Source: Serendipita indica DSM 11827 (lineage: Eukaryota; Basidiomycota; Agaricomycetes; Sebacinales; Serendipitaceae). Taken from it: a stretch of DNA of 64,000 nt. A program made the position numbers and the translations under genes. Under the pieces are notes generated by a model. The model had not been told where the DNA came from and ran no database searches. It was given only the letters and a program-made list of their open reading frames with translations. Within the stretch, counting starts at the first letter, position 1, and every line of letters starts with the position of its first letter. Where the stretch lies: assembly GCA_910890315.1 (NCBI GenBank), contig CAJVGD010000002.1:2777226-2841225 (forward strand), in the 5' to 3' direction. Positions 27,915 through 53,498 of the stretch are shown in pieces.

Positions 27915-28728
27915 ATGATGTTCAAGACTGTCTTCTTTGCTATTGCTGCCGCCCTTGTTGGCTCCGTCACCGCTCTCCCGACCCCAGACAGGGAAGTCCG
28001 CTTTGCCGTTCGGTGTGTATTCTTTCCTCGAGTGTTACGGTCATACTGACTTGTGTAGGGATGTCCAAGTCATGTTCGTCGTTACCACTTCCTCAAGGCC
28101 GAGTTACTGACCTTTATTTAGTGGCGTTCGCTCCATCCCCGTCCAAGCTCCTGAACTGATGTGAGTCTCTTGACTTTCATGGTATATCATATAACTCATC
28201 TTTGCCTAGTGTCCGTGGCGAGTCAGTATTACGTTCTTCCAAACGCGACAACTTTGCTCATGTAATATAGGTACATGATCCCCGTCGAGAAGCGACAGAT
28301 CCCAGAAGAGGTTCCAGTTCGAGCCACCAATGGTCAAATCACGGCTATCAAGCGTCAGACCGCAGAGGAGGATCCCGTTACCACCGAGTATGTCCAACTC
28401 TTGATTGAATATCATCAATCTAACGCGTTGTGCAGTAATAATGGCAACGTGATTCCGTACGTCAAGCGTGAGCCTCAAGGAAACATCCCCGCCGAAATTG
28501 CCGTTACCACCGAGTATGTCGCTCTTGATGCTTGAAAGAATATGCACGCTAACATTATGTAGCGGTTCGGGTAACATTATCCCATACGGCAAGGTCAAGC
28601 GTGAGGCAGAGCCCCAAAAGTTTATCCCTCTCGAACTCGCTGTGAGGACCGAGTAAGCGTTCGAAAATGACATCCATGGGTAATCTCTAACATCCTCTAG
28701 TGAATTCGGAAACATTGTCCCTTATTAG
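27915..28728 (+). CDS. Secreted repeat-peptide precursor with Kex2 sites (KEP/RiPP-like), exons equal to repeat units
   Basis: Eight exons (27915-28012, 28059-28073, 28122-28160, 28210-28221, 28271-28387, 28436-28513, 28563-28652, 28701-28728) splice to a 158-residue protein. All seven introns are phase 2 and 45-50 bp, so every internal exon is a multiple of three (15, 39, 12, 117, 78, 90 nt). Residues 1-20 are a signal peptide (MMFKTVFFAIAAALVGSVTA). Dibasic KR sites, where Kex2 would cut, end at residues 63, 83, 105 and 133. The last three exons each begin with a related core: NNGNVIPYVKR, GSGNIIPYGKVKR, and EFGNIVPY followed by the stop. After two KR sites come EP or EAEP, which resemble Ste13-type trimming dipeptides of yeast alpha-factor. 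This is the layout of fungal Kex2-processed repeat proteins, some of which feed cyclic RiPPs. No DUF3328/UstY-like or other tailoring gene is visible in the window. Peptide function is unknown. Confidence 0.75.
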
Positions 28729-31708: not shown

Positions 31709-34700
31709 CTAATCCGTAAAGTCCGATTCAGAGGGCGGAGGTGGCTCCTTGTACGACACAGCGGCACGGATACCATGTGCGCCAACACCCGCCATGCCAA
31801 CTTCAGAATCCTCATTCCAATGCACGAGCTCACCGACGCTATGCAGGTTCTTGCTCTGCCCAGACGAGTAAAATTCTTGTGTCGAAGGATGCGGGCGTGG
31901 AATGCCATATACACCCGCGCTGAGGTACGGCTCTTCCATCCCGGATGAATGTCCTCCTGCGTTTGCACCGGGACTGAGCGGCAAGCTCTGCTGCGATCCT
32001 TGATAGGACATGCCCATACCGTCCCCTCCTGACCCTTGCGGACTGACTCCCTCTCCCAACGGACTCAAAGGCAAGCTACTTCTCGAGCCACCGTCCTGAC
32101 CCTGGTAGGAGCGCGCTGGATGAGGTACCGTAAAGTTTTCGCGCAGCTCGACGCCGAGGGACGAGATGGACGACTTCTTCCCACTTCCTGTATTGTCTGG
32201 AGAAAGTTCGAGGTCGACTGCGGCACTCATCGCGCCGAGGTGGTCGTATCTCGGCCGTGATTGCGATTGCTCGCTTGGGGATCCAGATCCACGTCCAATG
32301 GCGGCAGCATCCCATGCGATGCGGCTCCATAGATCTGCACGCCATTCTGGTGTCATACCCGCCATGGGCCCCACATCGACTTCCTCTGCCTCGACGTGAA
32401 GTACTTCTTCCGATGGGATAGAAGGAATATAGTACTGGTTCCCGACAAACGAGCCACTAGGATTGACGTCGTCTCCGTGGAAGCTCAGCTCGCTCGTCGT
32501 GTCGCGTTCTGAGATACCAGGCAATGGACTCCGCAAAGAGGCGCGCAGAGTGGATACCCTAGTCGACCTCATTGATGGTACACCAGAGATGGGACGTGAG
32601 GGTAAGGAGACCCGAGAGTTGTTTCGTGAATCCTGCAACGGTCGAGAGTCTTGCATTTCACGGAACGTCGCCGTCGTCCCCGTTGGCAATCCAAACGTAT
32701 GCGCGCTGTTTGGTTCTACAGCCCGCGCGTCCGAATGTTCCGGCATAGTCACATACTGCCCTCCTTCCTCGGAAATGTCCACACTGATCGGCGATGACCC
32801 ACCATCTGACCTGAGAATATCTTGTTGAGCCGCCCCTCTTCTTCAGGAGGTGGATGAACCAGGTTCCCTTCGTTGAAGCTGTCGCTATCTGAGTAGACAA
32901 TCTGCGTATGTGATGTGCCGGCGTGGAGACCTTTTGTACGACGCAAGCTATGATGTCGTTGAGAGCTCCCCTGCTCTTGAGTTTGCCTTGCATCATCAGA
33001 CGTCGAGCTCTGACTGCGACTATGCACAGACGCCTTGATGGTGCTCCCACTTCCATCTGACGAGGCTTGCGAACCCTCTGGCTTGGGTCTCCGTTTCTTC
33101 GAAGGACGCCGCTCGGCGTTCCGGAGCGTATTCTCCACCACGTCCGCTTCGACATCCCCCATCGCACCAGTCGAACTCGTCTTGGCCGACTTGCCAGACG
33201 CCAACGAGGTCGTCGACTTTAGTGGATCCTGCAGGGTAGAGTAAGAACCAGGAGGCTGCTTGAACATGCTTCCCCGGGGCGTCTTTGAGCCGCTAGAATA
33301 ACCTGGCGGTAGTGTCTCGCGCGACTCTCCCTTTTGGCGGTAATAAGACGTTCGCGTCTTTTGATCGTCCTCGAGCGCATCGGGATCAAATTCTGGCTCG
33401 GTCACAACCGAATGCGTCATGGTGTACGGTGTCCCAGGGAGCGATTTGTCCACGTTGGGAGGGTTGCCGGAGGATCGCAGGGACGCGATCGCTGGATGTG
33501 TTGGTCGTCGTGACATTGACCTTGGCCGCTGTTTAGGTGTCGGTGGTTCCTCTGTCCCGTCCTCTCCGACTTCCTCTGCGCGCTGGGACCTGTGTCCCTC
33601 GGAGACGGCTTCGACTTGATCGTTGATGCGCACTGCACTACGGCTGAACATACCAGGGACGGTAAAGCTCATTTCTCGCAGATAATTGGGTTGGTCGGAT
33701 CGTTGGCAGCGTCGATTGCCAGCTGTCTGAATGACTGAGCGAGATGAGAAGGGGGAGAGACCAATCTATCAGCTGCCACTAGCGTCGTCATAGATGGCTC
33801 GCTGAACCCATGAATTCCAGGCAAGACTCCTTCATCCAGAAGCATTTCGTTATCCGGAGGTGGCATTCCTCTCCACGAGGACGAAGAGGTCCTGACATGG
33901 TTGTTTTCATCGTCCCTCGACCGCTCCATCGTTCTGAGAGAGGCAGTTTCCTTGGTCCTAAATGAGACAGCATCCTATTCAGAGAACCAGTTTCTCTCGT
34001 CTTGAACGAGGCATCACGGTTTAGAGAAGCAGTTTCTCTCGTCTTGAATGAAGTATCCCTATGCAGAGAAGCGGCTTCCTTCGTCTTAAAGGATGCTTCT
34101 CGATTCAGCGAAGCCACCTCTTTGGATTTGAGAGACGCTATATCCTGTCCTTTGAGGTTGACCTGGCTTTCACTTGCCATTACGTGGAACGACATTGGCC
34201 TTTGCTTGATAGACGGCACCTTTTCACTCTAGAACTCAAAGTCAGTCGTCGCGTTGACAAAGAAAAGCTGCCTTGTCACCTTTTTAGGGCTCATTTGTCG
34301 ACTCATAGACGAACTAGGTCGAGTTCGTACTTTGGTCGACGCCTCTTCCGGACCCGGACTGAAAATATGGATCGGCTCGGGCCCGTCCTCGACATCGGAA
34401 CGTTCTGAGCGCCTCGACTCCGTCTCCATTGAATCCGGCGACCCACGACCAGAATCCTTAGACGGCAAAGAGGGTGGTATAGTTAACGGGATGCTTTCCG
34501 CTGCGGAAAACATGGAGATTCGGGCCTTGAAATCCGGGCGTGGGATGTGTTCGGATGATGCCTCAGACGGGATGGACCTCACGTGTTCGGAATCTGGTTC
34601 AGAGGGGATGGATCTGACGTGCTCCGAATCCGGCTCCGAACCAAGTGACCGTACGTCTGACCTAGCATCCGACCTGGACTCTACTCGACTATTGGATCTC

Positions 34701-43165: not shown

Positions 43166-43345
43166 ATTCAGTTGTCAAACTGCATGCATATATGAAGTCA
43201 ACCCATTGCAAATTTGGTGAGATTGCAACCAAGATAGCACTTCTTTTGAGACCTGCTCAGTGGCGACTAGATGTAAGAGAGCTGTAGTTGGTTTGATTAA
43301 AACTTGAGTGATTATAGTTATTATTTTGCATTGCCTTCCAGTATT

Positions 43346-43426
43346 GGGTTCGTAACTCAGTGGTAGAGTGCCTGCTTTGCATCTCGCGATTGCATGAAGT
43401 CCAGGGTTCGATCCCCTGCGGATCCA
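43346..43426 (+). tRNA. tRNA-Ala (TGC) with a 9-nt intron
   Basis: Acceptor stem GGGTTCG (43346-43352) pairs with CGGATCC (43419-43425) using two G-T wobbles. D stem is ACTC/GAGT. The anticodon stem starts CCTGC (43371-43375), with loop TTTGCA and anticodon TGC at 43378-43380. An intron TCTCGCGAT (43382-43390) sits at the canonical place after position 37, then T and GCATG; this stem has one C-T mismatch. T arm is CAGGG, TTCGATC, CCCTG (43402-43418). Removing the intron leaves 72 nt. A TTTT terminator follows directly at 43430-43433. It sits between two protein genes in the plus orientation. Confidence 0.85.
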
Positions 43427-43429
43427 TTG

Positions 43430-48513: not shown

Positions 48514-51500
48514 TCAGATATCTTTAGGTATCGTTCCACCTTCCTTCACCCGTGTCCATTCTTCTCCGTGCACAAATTGGGTTGTATCGACACCCAGCCT
48601 CTGGACTTGACCTATGATGCGGACTCCTGGCCGCTCGATCCCAGCACGAAACGGAGGTGGTACCCAAAAGAGTCGCTGGCTAGTTGGACCAAATAACCAT
48701 CCATCGTCGCCCACCCGGCAGTACTGATTTAGAAATGAATGTATCTAGACAAATCAGAATATCACAAATTTACAGATCGATAGGACGCACACTGTCTTCT
48801 GTAGCACTGGTATTCGTTATGCGTACAGTTCGGTCTTCAGATCCAGAGGCAATGTGCTGGCCATCTGGCGAGAACGCGGCTGAGTAAACCGGAGTCGTAT
48901 GTCCCTCGAGTAGCGACCCAACCTGTGCGCCCGTTTCTACATCCCCAAGACGCACCGTTCGGTCCTCAGATCCAGAGACAATGCGCTGGCCGTCTGGCGA
49001 GAATGCAACCGAGCGGACATAATCTGTATGTCCTTCAAGCGGGGATCCAATCTGTGCGCCCGTTTCTACATCCCACAGACGCACCGTTCGGTCATCAGAT
49101 CCAGAGACAATGCGCTGGCCGTCTGGCGAGAATGCAACCGAGCGGACATAATCTGTATGTCCTTCAAGCGGGGATCCAATCTGTGCGCCCGTTTCTACAT
49201 CCCACAGACGCACCGTTCGGTCTAAAGATCCAGAGACAATGCGCTGGCCGTCTGGCGAGAATGCAACCGAGCGGACATAATCTGTATGTCCTTCAAGCGG
49301 GGATCCAATCTGTGCGCCCGTTTCTACATCCCACAGACGCACCGTTCGGTCATCAGATCCAGAGACAATGCGCTGGCCGTCTGGCGAGAATGCAACCGAG
49401 CGGACATAATCTGTATGTCCTTCAAGCGGGGATCCAATCTGTGCGCCCGTTTCTACATCCCACAGACGCACCGTTCGGTCAAAAGATCCAGAGACAATGC
49501 GCTGGCCGTCTGGCGAGAATGCAACCGAGCGGACATAATCTGTATGTCCTTCAAGCGGGGATCCAATCTGTGCGCCCGTTTCTACATCCCACAGACGCAC
49601 CGTTCGGTCATCAGATCCAGAGACAATGCGCTGGCCGTCTGGCGAGAATGCAACCGACATAACCCAGTCTGTATGTCCTTCAAGCGGGGATCCAATCTGT
49701 GCGCCCGTTTCTACATCCCACAGACGCACCGTTCGGTCTAAAGATCCAGAGACAATGCGCTGGCCGTCTGGCGAGAATGCAACCGAGCGGACATAATCTG
49801 TATGTCCTTCAAGCGGGGATCCAATCTGTGCGCCCGTTTCTACATCCCACAGACGCACCGTTCGGTCATCAGATCCAGAGACAATGCGCTGGCCGTCTGG
49901 CGAGAATGCAACCGACATAACCCAGTCTGTATGTCCTTCAAGCGGGGATCCAATCTGTGCGCCCGTTTCTACATCCCACAGACGCACCGTTCGGTCTAAA
50001 GATCCAGAGACAATGCGCTGGCCGTCTGGCGAGAATGCAACCGACATAACCGAGCCTGTATGTCCTTCAAGCGGGGATCCAATCTGTGCGCCCGTTTCTA
50101 CATCCCACAGACGCACCGTTCGGTCTAAAGATCCAGAGACAATGCGCTGGCCGTCTGGCGAGAATGCAACCGACATAACCCAGTCTGTATGTCCTTCAAG
50201 CGGGGATCCAATCTGTGCGCCCGTTTCTACATCCCACAGACGCACCGTTCGGTCTAAAGATCCAGAGACAATGCGCTGGCCGTCTGGCGAGAATGCAACC
50301 GACATAACCGAGCCTGTATGTCCTTCAAGCGGGGATCCAATCTGTGCGCCCGTTTCTACATCCCACAGACGCACCGTTCGGTCATCAGATCCAGAGACAA
50401 TGCGCTGGCCGTCTGGCGAGAATGCAACCGAGCGGACATAATCTGTATGTCCTTCAAGCGGGGATCCAATCTGTGCGCCCGTTTCTACATCCCACAGACG
50501 CACCGTTCGGTCTGAAGATCCAGAGACAATGCGCTGGCCGTCTGGCGAGAATGCAACCGAGCGGACATAATCTGTATGTCCTTCAAGCGGGGATCCAATC
50601 TGTGCGCCCGTTTCTACATCCCACAGACGCACCGTTCGGTCTGAAGATCCAGAGACAATGCGCTGGCCGTCTGGCGAGAATGCAACCGACATAACCCAGC
50701 CTGTATGTCCTTCAAGCGGGGATCCAATCTGTGCGCCCGTTTCTACATCCCACAGACGCACCGTTCGGTCATCAGATCCAGAGACAACGCGCCGCCCGTC
50801 TGGAGAGAACGCAACTGCATTCACACTCCTGGTATGCCCGCGGAGTATGAAAAGGAGTGGTGACCACCGTTGATATCCACCTGAGTGGACGAATAATGTG
50901 TTGGGGTATTGATATCTGTATTGTTGGTGCACCTTCGAAACCGCAGGCGATAATGGCAAAGCCGACAGGTAGATGCCCGCTACGCTTTGTGAGATCACCT
51001 CAATGAAGTGCACCGTGAACTGGCGCATGTCCTCTGCAAGCGATATCAACTCGATGATATCATTCTCCTAAGAAGATTCAATCAAACAGTCTATGGCTGT
51101 GTTAGATTTACCTTCAACCATGAGGCCAACGCCGTAAGCATAGACGGTACCCTGTCCACAATCTGTAATAAACTTGCGACCTCGAGCCACAAAAGGAAGT
51201 GAACCTTGAGAACATATTGAACGAGGGTGATCGTTTCCTCACTTGGAAGATTCAAATGATCCACCCAATACTGCGACGCATACTGTAAATGGCGGGGAAT
51301 GTAGGTCTCAATAGATGAGAGTCCATTCAAAATCTCCTGATTTAGTAAATAGGACGATGAGATCTCGCAGATGTTGAATCGTAGCCTCTCCTTCATGATC
51401 CGTAGACATTGGTCTGCAAGAATCCGGTGGAGGTGTCTGTCGTGATTCTAGGGACAAAATAAGTCGTATTCGGGTTCAAGAAAAAGTCCACAAATGACTG

Positions 51501-53498
51501 GTGGCGAAACCGAAGTCCCCCATCGAATTCTAGCACCGGTCGTAGCGCGCCACAGATGTGTTCGACCGTCCAAGGATCCATTGCGAGGAGATCCGTTAAG
51601 GTTTTCATGTCTAAAGTCTCCTTGGCGACAGCGAGTACGCCCAGAATTGTTCTTATATCCTCCGGTGAAGTTGCACTTGTATTTGGAAACGCAGTTTGGA
51701 GGACTGTGGTGTAGAGTGAGCCCATGCCTGTAACACGGTCTTCCTTTATAATCTCCTCCAAAAGTTTCATCGGGTTACCAGCACGGAGATACTCTATCAC
51801 CGTCGAGGCCCAGATGAATAGCCCATTGGCTTTGATCGCCAAGGTTTCAATAGTCGTTGTTTGAGGCCATTCGACGGATCGAATGGTATATTTGGTGGCA
51901 ACTTTCCTAAGCTCCTCAGTCAGGAATGCCTGAATGTCTCGTTTGGACTGGCTGACTGTCTCCTGTGTAGCGAGCAGGTCGATGGTGTGTGGAGGGTTGA
52001 GAGCGAACATTCTCGCTATGTCGTCCTCCTCGCGACTGGTGACGATCAACTTGCAACTGGTTGGAAGACGAAACCAGGCAGTGAGGGTTTGCAAAAGTTG
52101 TCGAAATTCGGTCGATCGCGCGCCGGCCAGTCCACCACACTCGTCCAATGCATCAATGATGACCACAGGTAATTGGTCCTGTGAAAGGTTGCCGATTTTG
52201 GACAACGGCCTTTCAACCAACTGCTGAAAAAGAATGTTGATATTCGGTGTTGTCAAGTCAATCTCCTCGTTTCTCATCTTATCCGCGAGGTATTTGCGAA
52301 TGGTAGGATGTCGCGCAAGGTCGTACGCAATCCCCTGCCACAGTGCGCTAGCAGTCGTAGTTGCAGTCTCTTGTCGACGGAAGAAGAAGCTCGATCCTAG
52401 ACGCGTCTTTTTGATACCGAGTGTAGTCACCAAGGTAGATGCTATGGTCGACTTGCCCGCTCCTGGTGCAGCTTTGATCCAGAGGATGTTGGGAGCGTCT
52501 GGGTTTTTGGACCAGGCTTCGCATTCAGCCAATATTTCCGCACGTGTACCCGGCTGGCATTCCTGCGGACGTTGACGTTGTTTAGATTGGAGTTCCTTCA
52601 ATATGTCCCGCTCCGCCGTAGCTCTAACAGACACGGTGACATAGAGAATCAGAGCATGCTGGAACAGAATAAGCTTTGGAACATGTCTTCCAGGCGGAAT
52701 ACGAACCATCAATTCGTTCCTTGCATCCGTTAGGCGTTGCTTGTATCCATTGATCGTGTCCGCTTCCAGCTTTGTAGTGCCGATGCGTTGGACCAGTACT
52801 TTCCAAGTCAGACCCTTATCAAACTCGGATTCATCGAGCCCAGAATCTACGCATATCTCGGCTATCAACTCTTTGAGGGTACTATTCGAGATGAGATTGT
52901 GTCCAACAGACGATGATGGACATACATGGAGTAGTTTGTAAGTGGATCCTTGATAGAGTCCTCGCACTCTTCGAGTACATCTTTGATACCTAGCTGATCT
53001 AGTTGTCGTTGAAACGTCCTCGTGTGTTCTCTAATGGTCTGCAAGAGGTCTGACCAGGCGTATTGGTTATCTTTGATGGCCTGGAGTGTTCTTAGAGTGC
53101 ATTTATTGAATAAAATTTGAAACCTACCTGAACGGAATCCAGGATTGTTACAACAGCTTCGCAGGCTCCTTTCAATGGTGCAAACTCGGCAGCATCCGCG
53201 ATACTTTTGTCAAACTGAGCATGAGAGCTACACGAGCAAGCCATTTGTCCATTTTGGATCGTCGTGTCTGTTCATGATCCGGGCTCGGATGTTGTTGATC
53301 GGTGGTAGATTGCGTCGTCGGTAATGCCACTGTAGTGACTACAGATTGCTGAAGAGATGGGTCTTGTTCAACAACAGGCGGTGCGACGAGCCTCGTGCTG
53401 GCTTGGACCAGACTCGCAGATGCACCGGACGTAGTGGGGGTCAAGGTGGTACCCTGAGTCTTCTTAGATTTTTTGCGTATTTTACGGAATATATCCAT
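48514..53498 (-). CDS. NLR: NACHT NTPase with 16 WD40 repeats, two apparent frameshifts
   Basis: STAND-class sensor like HET-E/HNWD. The N-terminus (53498, MDIFRKIRKKSKKTQ) is basic then low-complexity; next is a helical region (ADAAEFAPLKGACEAVVTIL; WSDLLQTIREHTRTFQRQ). NACHT: Walker A WIKAAPGAGKSTIASTLV, Walker B PVVIIDALDECGG, sensor KLIVTSREEDDI, and the winged-helix region FRHQSFVDFFLN. Then a helical spacer and 16 WD40 units of 43 residues; units 2-15 are nearly identical. Reading stops at 48770 if unspliced, but a GTGCGT...CTAG intron (46 bp) before it leads to NQYCRVGDDGWLF, RLFWVPPPFRAGIERPG and FVHGEEWTRV, the usual post-WD40 tail of Agaricomycete NLRs, ending at 48514. Frame breaks at about 53,212-53,214 and 51,417 each need one base. 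Probable role: immunity or allorecognition by ligand-triggered oligomerisation. Confidence 0.85.
48955..50830 (-). repeat. 129-bp WD40-coding tandem array, about 14 near-identical units
   Basis: Plus-strand text repeats a unit with GACGCACCGTTCGGTC and AATGCGCTGGCCGTCTGG at 129-bp steps from about 48,955 to 50,820. Differences are confined to a few codons: after HT (GWV, DYV, GSV, DWV), the next M or R, and the residue before DRT (S, D, L, F or E). The first and last units are more diverged. Such arrays expand and contract by recombination, so copy number may vary between strains and may be collapsed in assemblies. Confidence 0.95.

What the first reader, a model, noticed from the sequence alone, without database searches (positions are those of the whole stretch)
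27915..28728. Kex2-processed repeat-peptide precursor in which each exon is a repeat unit
Seen: an eight-exon gene with a signal peptide, four KR sites, and a core (NGNVIPY, SGNIIPY, FGNIVPY) at the start of the last three exons. All seven introns are phase 2, so units can be gained or lost as whole exons without frame damage. EP and EAEP follow two KR sites, like Ste13 trimming sites. Established: fungal KEP proteins and dikaritin RiPP precursors (ustiloxin, phomopsin, epichloecyclin) have signal peptide plus KR-separated repeats with a Tyr in the core. Inference: this encodes a family of secreted peptides, perhaps cyclised or pheromone-like. Copy-number growth by exon duplication would be a neat mechanism not usually described for this class.
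Basis: partly seen in the sequence, partly recalled or inferred. Interest (0 to 1): 0.85.

Follow-up and report, generated by a model that had tools for sequence, protein, structure and literature searches.

The report
Exon-partitioned repeat-peptide precursor of a root fungus
This gene, from a root-dwelling fungus (most likely Serendipita indica), encodes a secreted protein that is probably cut into four short related peptides; it belongs to a peptide family already known from mushrooms, but its repeats are split into exons by introns lying inside the peptides, a layout that I did not find described for this family.

Summary
Eight exons, seven phase-2 GT-AG introns of 46-49 nt, a signal peptide and four KR sites give an open 158-aa frame. 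A 157-aa protein identical to the spliced product is in the protein collection, and close relatives align across the junctions. The genome is very probably Serendipita indica.
It is a Kex2-processed repeat protein (KEP) of a known family. The unit consensus (Q)IPAEIAVKS-NG-IVPY-KR matches Coprinopsis cinerea KEP 497993, whose linear pyroglutamyl peptides were detected by mass spectrometry (PMC9769878). It is probably also Umemura's most widespread KEP type, with 0 of 64 genes near DUF3328 (PMC7329392). Cyclisation is therefore unlikely.
"Each exon is a repeat unit" needs correction. The introns lie inside the peptides, so exons 6 and 7 are permuted units, and unit 1 has no intron. The same phase-2 position can be inferred in a Serendipita vermifera protein and in an unnamed contig; a third relative has uninterrupted tandem units. 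A 20-nt exact repeat spans two exon-intron junctions.
What is new: a Sebacinales member, its exon layout, and a conserved pro-segment encoded mainly by the three small exons 2-4.

The parts
27915..28012 (+). exon 1: signal peptide (about M1-A20, judged by eye) and start of pro-region
   Evidence: P0001
28059..28073 (+). exon 2, 15-nt microexon (DVQVI) of the pro-segment
   Evidence: segment conserved in relatives
28122..28160 (+). exon 3, 39 nt (GVRSIPVQAPELI) of the pro-segment
28210..28221 (+). exon 4, 12-nt microexon (VRGE) of the pro-segment
28011..28219 (+). conserved pro-segment RDVQVIGVRSIPVQAPELIVRG (introns 1-3 inside)
   Evidence: 80% mean pairwise identity in 12 chosen sequences (P0001 among them), against 52% for the last 17 residues of 11 of them
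28271..28387 (+). exon 5: end of pro-region, KR, whole unit 1, KR, first half of unit 2
28296..28349 (+). peptide unit 1 QIPEEVPVRATNGQITAI, intronless, KR on both sides
   Evidence: similar to the C. cinerea peptide, 0 of 5000 shuffles as good
28356..28463 (+). peptide unit 2 QTAEEDPVTTD^NNGNVIPYV, split by intron 5
   Evidence: 1 of 5000 shuffles as good
28436..28513 (+). exon 6 (78 nt): second half of unit 2, KR, first half of unit 3
28470..28596 (+). peptide unit 3 EPQGNIPAEIAVTTD^GSGNIIPYGKV, split by intron 6; EP is a possible Ste13 site
   Evidence: 0 of 5000 shuffles as good
28563..28652 (+). exon 7 (90 nt): second half of unit 3, KR, first half of unit 4
28603..28725 (+). peptide unit 4 EAEPQKFIPLELAVRTD^EFGNIVPY, split by intron 7, ends at the stop; EAEP is a possible Ste13 site
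   Evidence: 2 of 5000 shuffles as good
28701..28728 (+). exon 8: second half of unit 4 and stop
28375..28394 (+). 20-nt exact repeat copy 1 (CCGTTACCACCGAGTATGTC), across the exon 5 / intron 5 junction
   Evidence: longest repeat in 500 shuffles of the gene was 13
28501..28520 (+). 20-nt exact repeat copy 2, across the exon 6 / intron 6 junction

Best explanation
The gene encodes a secreted KEP of the Agaricomycete family typified by Coprinopsis cinerea KEP 497993. Shown here by sequence: signal peptide, conserved pro-segment, four related units separated by KR, and phase-2 introns inside units 2-4. Inferred steps: the precursor enters the secretory pathway; Kex2 cuts after each KR and Kex1 trims the basic residues; N-terminal Gln of units 1 and 2 becomes pyroglutamate, as shown by MS in C. 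cinerea; a Ste13-like dipeptidyl peptidase removes EP and EA-EP from units 3 and 4, leaving Gln N-termini there too. Four linear, slightly different 18-24-residue peptides result. They most likely act outside the cell on other organisms or other hyphae rather than in axenic growth, because C. cinerea knockouts had no phenotype. Unit number and sequence change by tandem duplication of the exon-plus-intron period. Because exon borders lie mid-peptide, a new exon adds one peptide in frame and recombines front and back halves of neighbouring units.
For: Open spliced frame, all introns phase 2. Identical spliced protein P0001. Family with the same layout. Unit regex: 95 of 148 units with a preceding dibasic site begin with Q (window sequence counted twice, as itself and as P0001). 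Against the C. cinerea peptide, 0, 1, 0 and 2 of 5000 shuffles were as good for units 1-4, and 1 of 5000 for the whole protein. Kex2-type and DPPIV-type matches present. PMC9769878 (abstract and sections 3, 6, 7, 8, 10 read, passages of 9): pyro-QIPAELPTKSINGNIEPY detected, lost in the knockout, no axenic phenotype. In-unit phase-2 intron also inferred in P0012 (57 nt) and P0040 (72 nt). 20-nt repeat across two exon-intron junctions. Unit number by regex runs from 1 to 7 (0 in the read-through fragment P0040; the regex misses some units).
Against: No RNA-seq reads or genomic DNA of a relative could be read here. P0001 sits on a 4886-nt contig of unstated type. Unit 1 has no intron and the units of P0023 are uninterrupted, so the link of intron and unit is not universal. 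One search offered 4 possible donor-acceptor pairs for P0012 and 2 for P0040; I chose the one that restores the unit. These read-through cases are biased to stop-free introns of 3n length. Of the 20-nt repeat, 13 nt are coding (PVTTD/AVTTD) and the next 6 a common donor sequence, so unconstrained shuffles overstate it. Introns 5 and 6 resemble each other only weakly (p 0.008 of 21 uncorrected pairs; introns 3 and 5 gave 0.005). Units 2-4 have T or R at the usual K and S positions, and unit 1 lacks the Tyr. The extracellular function is shown in nothing I read.
Confidence: 0.72

Rival explanations
1. Dikaritin-type RiPP precursor: core tyrosines are oxidised and cyclised by UstYa/DUF3328 proteins after Kex2 cutting.
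For: Signal peptide, KR-separated repeats, Tyr in three of four cores.
Against: No UstYa match in the genome at E<=1 (its control rang nowhere, so weak). None among 37 of 156 window ORFs scanned; recognised neighbours are UreD, a mitochondrial carrier, RPN1, ferric reductase, cytochrome b5, CH-domain proteins, PX, DUF6535 and NACHT/WD40. Unit 1 has no Tyr. The C. cinerea relative gives linear peptides (PMC9769878). Probable matching type #7: 0 of 64 near DUF3328 (PMC7329392).
Confidence: 0.06
2. Alpha-pheromone-like hormone: Ste13-trimmed peptides act on a self receptor of the GPCR kind.
For: EP and EAEP after two KR sites; a DPPIV-type gene. Le Marquer 2019 (PMC6339444; abstract, passages and sections 7, 10, 17 read) reports Basidiomycota KEPs with Ste13 signatures and speculates on GPCR-sensed roles.
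Against: No STE2-type receptor found (control silent, so weak). STE3-type receptors are there (22 matches), but basidiomycete mating pheromones are of the prenylated a-type (PMC9769878; that STE3 proteins are their receptors is recalled). In the unit list most units start with Q and few carry X-A/X-P repeats.
Confidence: 0.2
3. The main product is the pro-segment (mainly exons 2-4), and the repeat region is a spacer or chaperone.
For: The pro-segment is the most conserved of three stretches compared: 80% mean pairwise identity against 61% for the signal peptide and 52% for the last 17 residues, in 12 (11 for the last) sequences that I chose because they show it. P0031 and P0033 carry a second LGVRSVP-like copy.
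Against: Named Agaricales relatives lack this exact segment by eye but keep the units. In C. cinerea the detected peptides include the unit peptides (PMC9769878).
Confidence: 0.15
4. Introns are passive passengers: units multiply by unequal crossing-over of a DNA repeat, and the exon structure has no part in it.
For: Unit 1 is intronless, the units of P0023 are uninterrupted, and intron-intron similarity is weak.
Against: All seven introns share phase 2; the same in-unit position recurs in P0012 and P0040; the exact repeat runs over the junction.
Confidence: 0.35

Closest known systems
Coprinopsis cinerea KEP 497993 and homologues (Vogt et al. 2022, PMC9769878)
   Same: Signal peptide, KR-separated units, peptide QIPAELPTKSINGNIEPYKV aligned with all four window units, best with units 1 and 3; kept across Agaricomycetes (at least 13 homologues in the paper).
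   Different: The window protein has a long conserved pro-segment, longer N-termini with Ste13-like EP/EAEP on units 3-4, and repeats split by introns. The paper's main text has no 'exon' and one 'intron', about cDNA cloning.
KEP type G-1/P-2 (#7) of Umemura 2020 (PMC7329392)
   Same: Most widespread KEP type by genera (64 KEPs, 62 strains, 49 genera, including Coprinopsis and Termitomyces), none near DUF3328; DUF2188 and DUF1648 among its profile hits, as.
   Different: Identity with this family is inferred: the motif logo is in a figure not held. Serendipita is not in its genus list.
Dikaritin precursors (ustiloxin, phomopsin, epichloecyclin)
   Same: Precursor layout.
   Different: No UstYa partner found (with the limits stated); the relative's peptides are linear.
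Honeybee apidaecin gene
   Same: Multipeptide precursor in which several exons each encode a peptide (stated in PMC3415428, passages read).
   Different: An insect antimicrobial gene, not compared here by sequence; in the window gene the exon borders lie inside the peptides.

Membership tests
KEP (Kex2-processed repeat protein) | N-terminal signal peptide | tested here: met
   MMFKTVFFAIAAALVGSVTA by eye, similar in close relatives; no signal-peptide program was available
KEP (Kex2-processed repeat protein) | similar repeats separated by dibasic Kex2 sites | tested here: met
   four units, four KR sites
KEP (Kex2-processed repeat protein) | peptides actually released by Kex2 | not testable with these tools
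   two P_proprotein (Kex2-type) matches in the genome only make it possible
KEP 497993 family | unit like QIPAELPTKSINGNIEPY | tested here: met
   0, 1, 0, 2 of 5000 shuffles as good for units 1-4; 1 of 5000 for the whole protein; linked through P0018, P0028, P0030
KEP 497993 family | linear, pyroglutamyl peptides | not testable with these tools
   needs mass spectrometry; N-terminal Q present in units 1 and 2
Dikaritin RiPP | UstYa/DUF3328 protein encoded nearby | tested here: not met
   none among the 37 of 156 window ORFs scanned with Pfam; short exons could hide one
Dikaritin RiPP | UstYa protein somewhere in the genome | tested here: inconclusive
   0 matches, but the control rang nowhere
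Alpha-type pheromone precursor | X-A/X-P dipeptides after the Kex2 sites | tested here: inconclusive
   after two of four KR sites only
Alpha-type pheromone precursor | STE2-type receptor | tested here: inconclusive
   0 matches, control silent

The most novel reading that the evidence does not exclude
In this widespread peptide family a phase-2 intron placed inside the peptide makes internal exons of the array in-frame, circularly permuted repeat units. Peptide number and sequence then evolve (and may be tuned by exon skipping) by exon gain, loss and shuffling, each event joining the front half of one peptide to the back half of another: exon shuffling at the scale of a 20-residue hormone-like peptide.
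Probability: 0.3. Interest if true: 0.62.

Novelty: new variant of a known kind. Interest (0 to 1): 0.45.

Why it matters
The family is probably the KEP type found in most fungal genera (PMC7329392), and the one study of its peptides that I read found no function. A Sebacinales member in a plant-root endophyte takes it to an early-branching Agaricomycete order (branching position and lifestyle recalled) and to a system where effects on plant partners can be tested. The exon layout gives a concrete, checkable route by which such precursors change peptide number, and the conserved pro-segment points to a part of the precursor that the KEP passages I read do not discuss.

Tried and rejected
Paralogues in the own genome: the 75-aa repeat query found only this gene, in two pieces. 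The IP[AE]E[ILV]AV pattern had three matches, one here; the other two (L012, L014) have no KR-repeat surroundings. So the gene looks single-copy, but short exons limit this.

DNA of relatives: viral contigs (12 and 31 pattern matches, none confirmed) and genome contigs (39, none confirmed) gave none, as expected of viral and prokaryotic collections. So exon structures of relatives rest on back-translation of read-through proteins.

Intron homology by shuffling: suggestive only. Its printed header says 2000 shuffles but 1000 were run.

Pfam hits of the precursor and of ten relatives (Tir_receptor_M, DUF7330, CoV_S1_C and so on) are all below the curated cut-offs and taken as chance.

P0037 shows a donor-like site at the same place but its phase is ambiguous.

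Papers on one exon per repeat in fungal Kex2 precursors: searches listed none whose title or abstract start describes it, and one search listed no paper at all. One search, meant for epichloecyclin gigA, matched 6,517 papers through 'giga' and answers nothing, so the exon structure of gigA is unchecked. The library lacks most subscription papers; this is not proof of absence. PMC8786786 (passages) concerns other repeat proteins with one or two introns.

Full report
What is there. The gene at 27915-28728 (+) has eight exons and seven GT-AG introns of 46, 48, 49, 49, 48, 49 and 48 nt, all in phase 2, and encodes 158 aa ending at a TAG. Layout: signal peptide (by eye); pro-region; then KR-separated units. 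Unit 1 is QIPEEVPVRATNGQITAI, unit 2 QTAEEDPVTTDNNGNVIPYV, unit 3 EPQGNIPAEIAVTTDGSGNIIPYGKV, unit 4 EAEPQKFIPLELAVRTDEFGNIVPY (end of protein).

Is the exon model real? A protein search returned P0001, 157 aa, identical to the spliced product from the second Met. Its only listed source is 'lgn' and its contig is 4886 nt. I take it as transcript evidence because a gene finder that ignores introns cannot produce it from genomic DNA, but the contig type is not stated. Relatives P0002-P0004 align over the whole length, junctions included. The rows for P0001 list no NCBI or UniRef source, so the protein may be missing or differently modelled in reference annotation.

Which organism. Named relatives are Serendipita vermifera (P0012, P0016) and, weakly, Amanita muscaria (P0025). 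A phosphate transporter gene of the same genome is identical over 248 consecutive residues, as printed, to PDB 7sp5, which I recall as PiPT of Serendipita (Piriformospora) indica; the tool gives no organism. The genome has 24.7 Mb.

The family. Three protein searches gave 41 proteins, P0001-P0041. Rows used to build the profiles match by construction, and P0025 scored only E 0.68 before it was included. From the profile (window protein and P0001-P0004), P0018 scored 3e-17 and P0022 2e-7. Searches scored only the about 8000 candidates sharing most words. Named members: Serendipita vermifera, Amanita muscaria, Lentinula raphanica and L. edodes, Termitomyces, Desarmillaria tabescens, Russula decolorans, Agrocybe chaxingu, and one ascomycete (P0036). 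A regular expression found 156 units in 42 sequences (the window counted twice, some units missed); 95 of 148 units with a preceding dibasic site begin with Q, and unit numbers run from 1 to 7, with 0 in the fragment P0040.

What is known. The unit is that of Coprinopsis cinerea KEP 497993 (PMC9769878; abstract and sections 3, 6, 7, 8, 10 read, passages of 9). There pyro-QIPAELPTKSINGNIEPY and its +K form were detected mainly in premature fruiting-body caps and disappeared in the knockout, the knockout showed no phenotype, and at least 13 homologues were reported. Window units against that peptide: 0, 1, 0 and 2 of 5000 shuffles as good for units 1-4, and 1 of 5000 for the whole protein. Umemura's type G-1/P-2 (PMC7329392, section 6 and passages read) is probably the same family: 64 KEPs in 49 genera, none with DUF3328 within 15 genes. 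Le Marquer 2019 (PMC6339444; abstract, passages and sections 7, 10, 17 read) names XSDW as the conserved Basidiomycota motif in section 10. The word 'exon' occurs in none of these three main texts and 'intron' once, about cDNA. Of 17 papers holding one of six peptide strings (16 listed), only PMC9769878, among those listed, held more than the five-letter string.

Exons and units. Exons 6 and 7 (78 and 90 nt) have the repeat period, but their borders lie in the middle of the peptides: each intron follows GA of the D codon in TTD/RTD. Exon 8 is a half unit, exon 5 holds unit 1 whole plus half of unit 2, and exons 2-4 are not repeats. The same place carries what looks like an unremoved intron in the Serendipita vermifera model P0012: of four donor-acceptor pairs that its letters allow, one (57 nt, phase 2) restores QLPAEVASKSDGGAIVAYPKR, equal to the unit before it. 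In P0040, one of two possible pairs (72 nt, phase 2) joins two identical copies of the unit as KSE-NG, the family consensus. P0023 reads through three tandem copies, the middle one in the +1 frame (24 of the 24 residues that could be tested of 26); its units are uninterrupted, so any introns lie between them (exact borders not computed). These cases favour stop-free introns of 3n length by the way they were found.

Duplication. A 20-nt exact repeat runs over the exon 5/intron 5 and exon 6/intron 6 junctions (28375 and 28501); 500 shuffles gave at most 13. Thirteen of the 20 nt are coding and the next six a usual donor sequence, so the shuffles overstate it. The rest of introns 5 and 6 is only weakly similar, and no more than introns 3 and 5. 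Duplication of an exon-plus-intron period is thus likely for exon 6, less clear for exon 7. Since all introns are phase 2, exon gain, loss or skipping keeps the frame; intron 5 (48 nt) is also stop-free in frame.

Pro-segment. RDVQVIGVRSIPVQAPELIVRG, mainly from the 15-, 39- and 12-nt exons 2-4, is the most conserved of three stretches compared among 12 sequences that I chose because they show it (P0001 among them): 80% mean pairwise identity, 12 of 22 columns invariant, against 61% for the signal peptide and 52% for the last 17 residues of 11 of them. Ten further relatives printed there have a variant or partial form.

Surroundings. Pfam scans of 37 of the 156 ORFs of 110 aa or more found UreD, a mitochondrial carrier, cytochrome b5, RPN1, ferric reductase, PX, CH-domain proteins, DUF6535, WD40 and NACHT/NPHP3 domains and no RiPP tailoring enzyme. 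In the genome, Kex2-type (two matches) and DPPIV-type (three neighbouring pieces) genes are present; UstYa and STE2 gave nothing, with silent controls; STE3 gave 22 matches.

Verdict. A genuine, probably expressed precursor; a Sebacinales member of a known KEP family; cyclisation unlikely; exon-wise growth plausible and partly supported; function outside the cell unknown, most likely in interaction with other organisms.

Noticed in passing
window 28011-28219: Pro-segment encoded mainly by three small exons (15, 39, 12 nt) is more conserved than the last peptide unit in 12 chosen sequences; P0031 and P0033 carry a second copy of its LGVRSVP-like core.
   Followed up: partly
window 48770-53030 (-): NACHT/NPHP3 plus WD40 gene pieces; the WD40 part holds a 129-nt tandem repeat, 15.4 copies, 94% matches, like STAND receptors with highly alike repeats (comparison recalled).
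   Followed up: no
window 33969-34114: 42-nt tandem repeat, 3.5 copies, 73% matches, overlapping minus-strand ORF 33788-34228, which has no Pfam hit.
   Followed up: no
G000 C1, C13, C36, C40, C43: Many STE3-type pheromone receptor matches: 22 pieces, the stronger ones on five contigs.
   Followed up: no
P0036: An ascomycete (Naviculisporaceae sp.) protein carries the same unit with PF instead of PY.
   Followed up: no
window 43345-43427: ARAGORN calls a tRNA with a four-base anticodon (ttgc), type undetermined.
   Followed up: no
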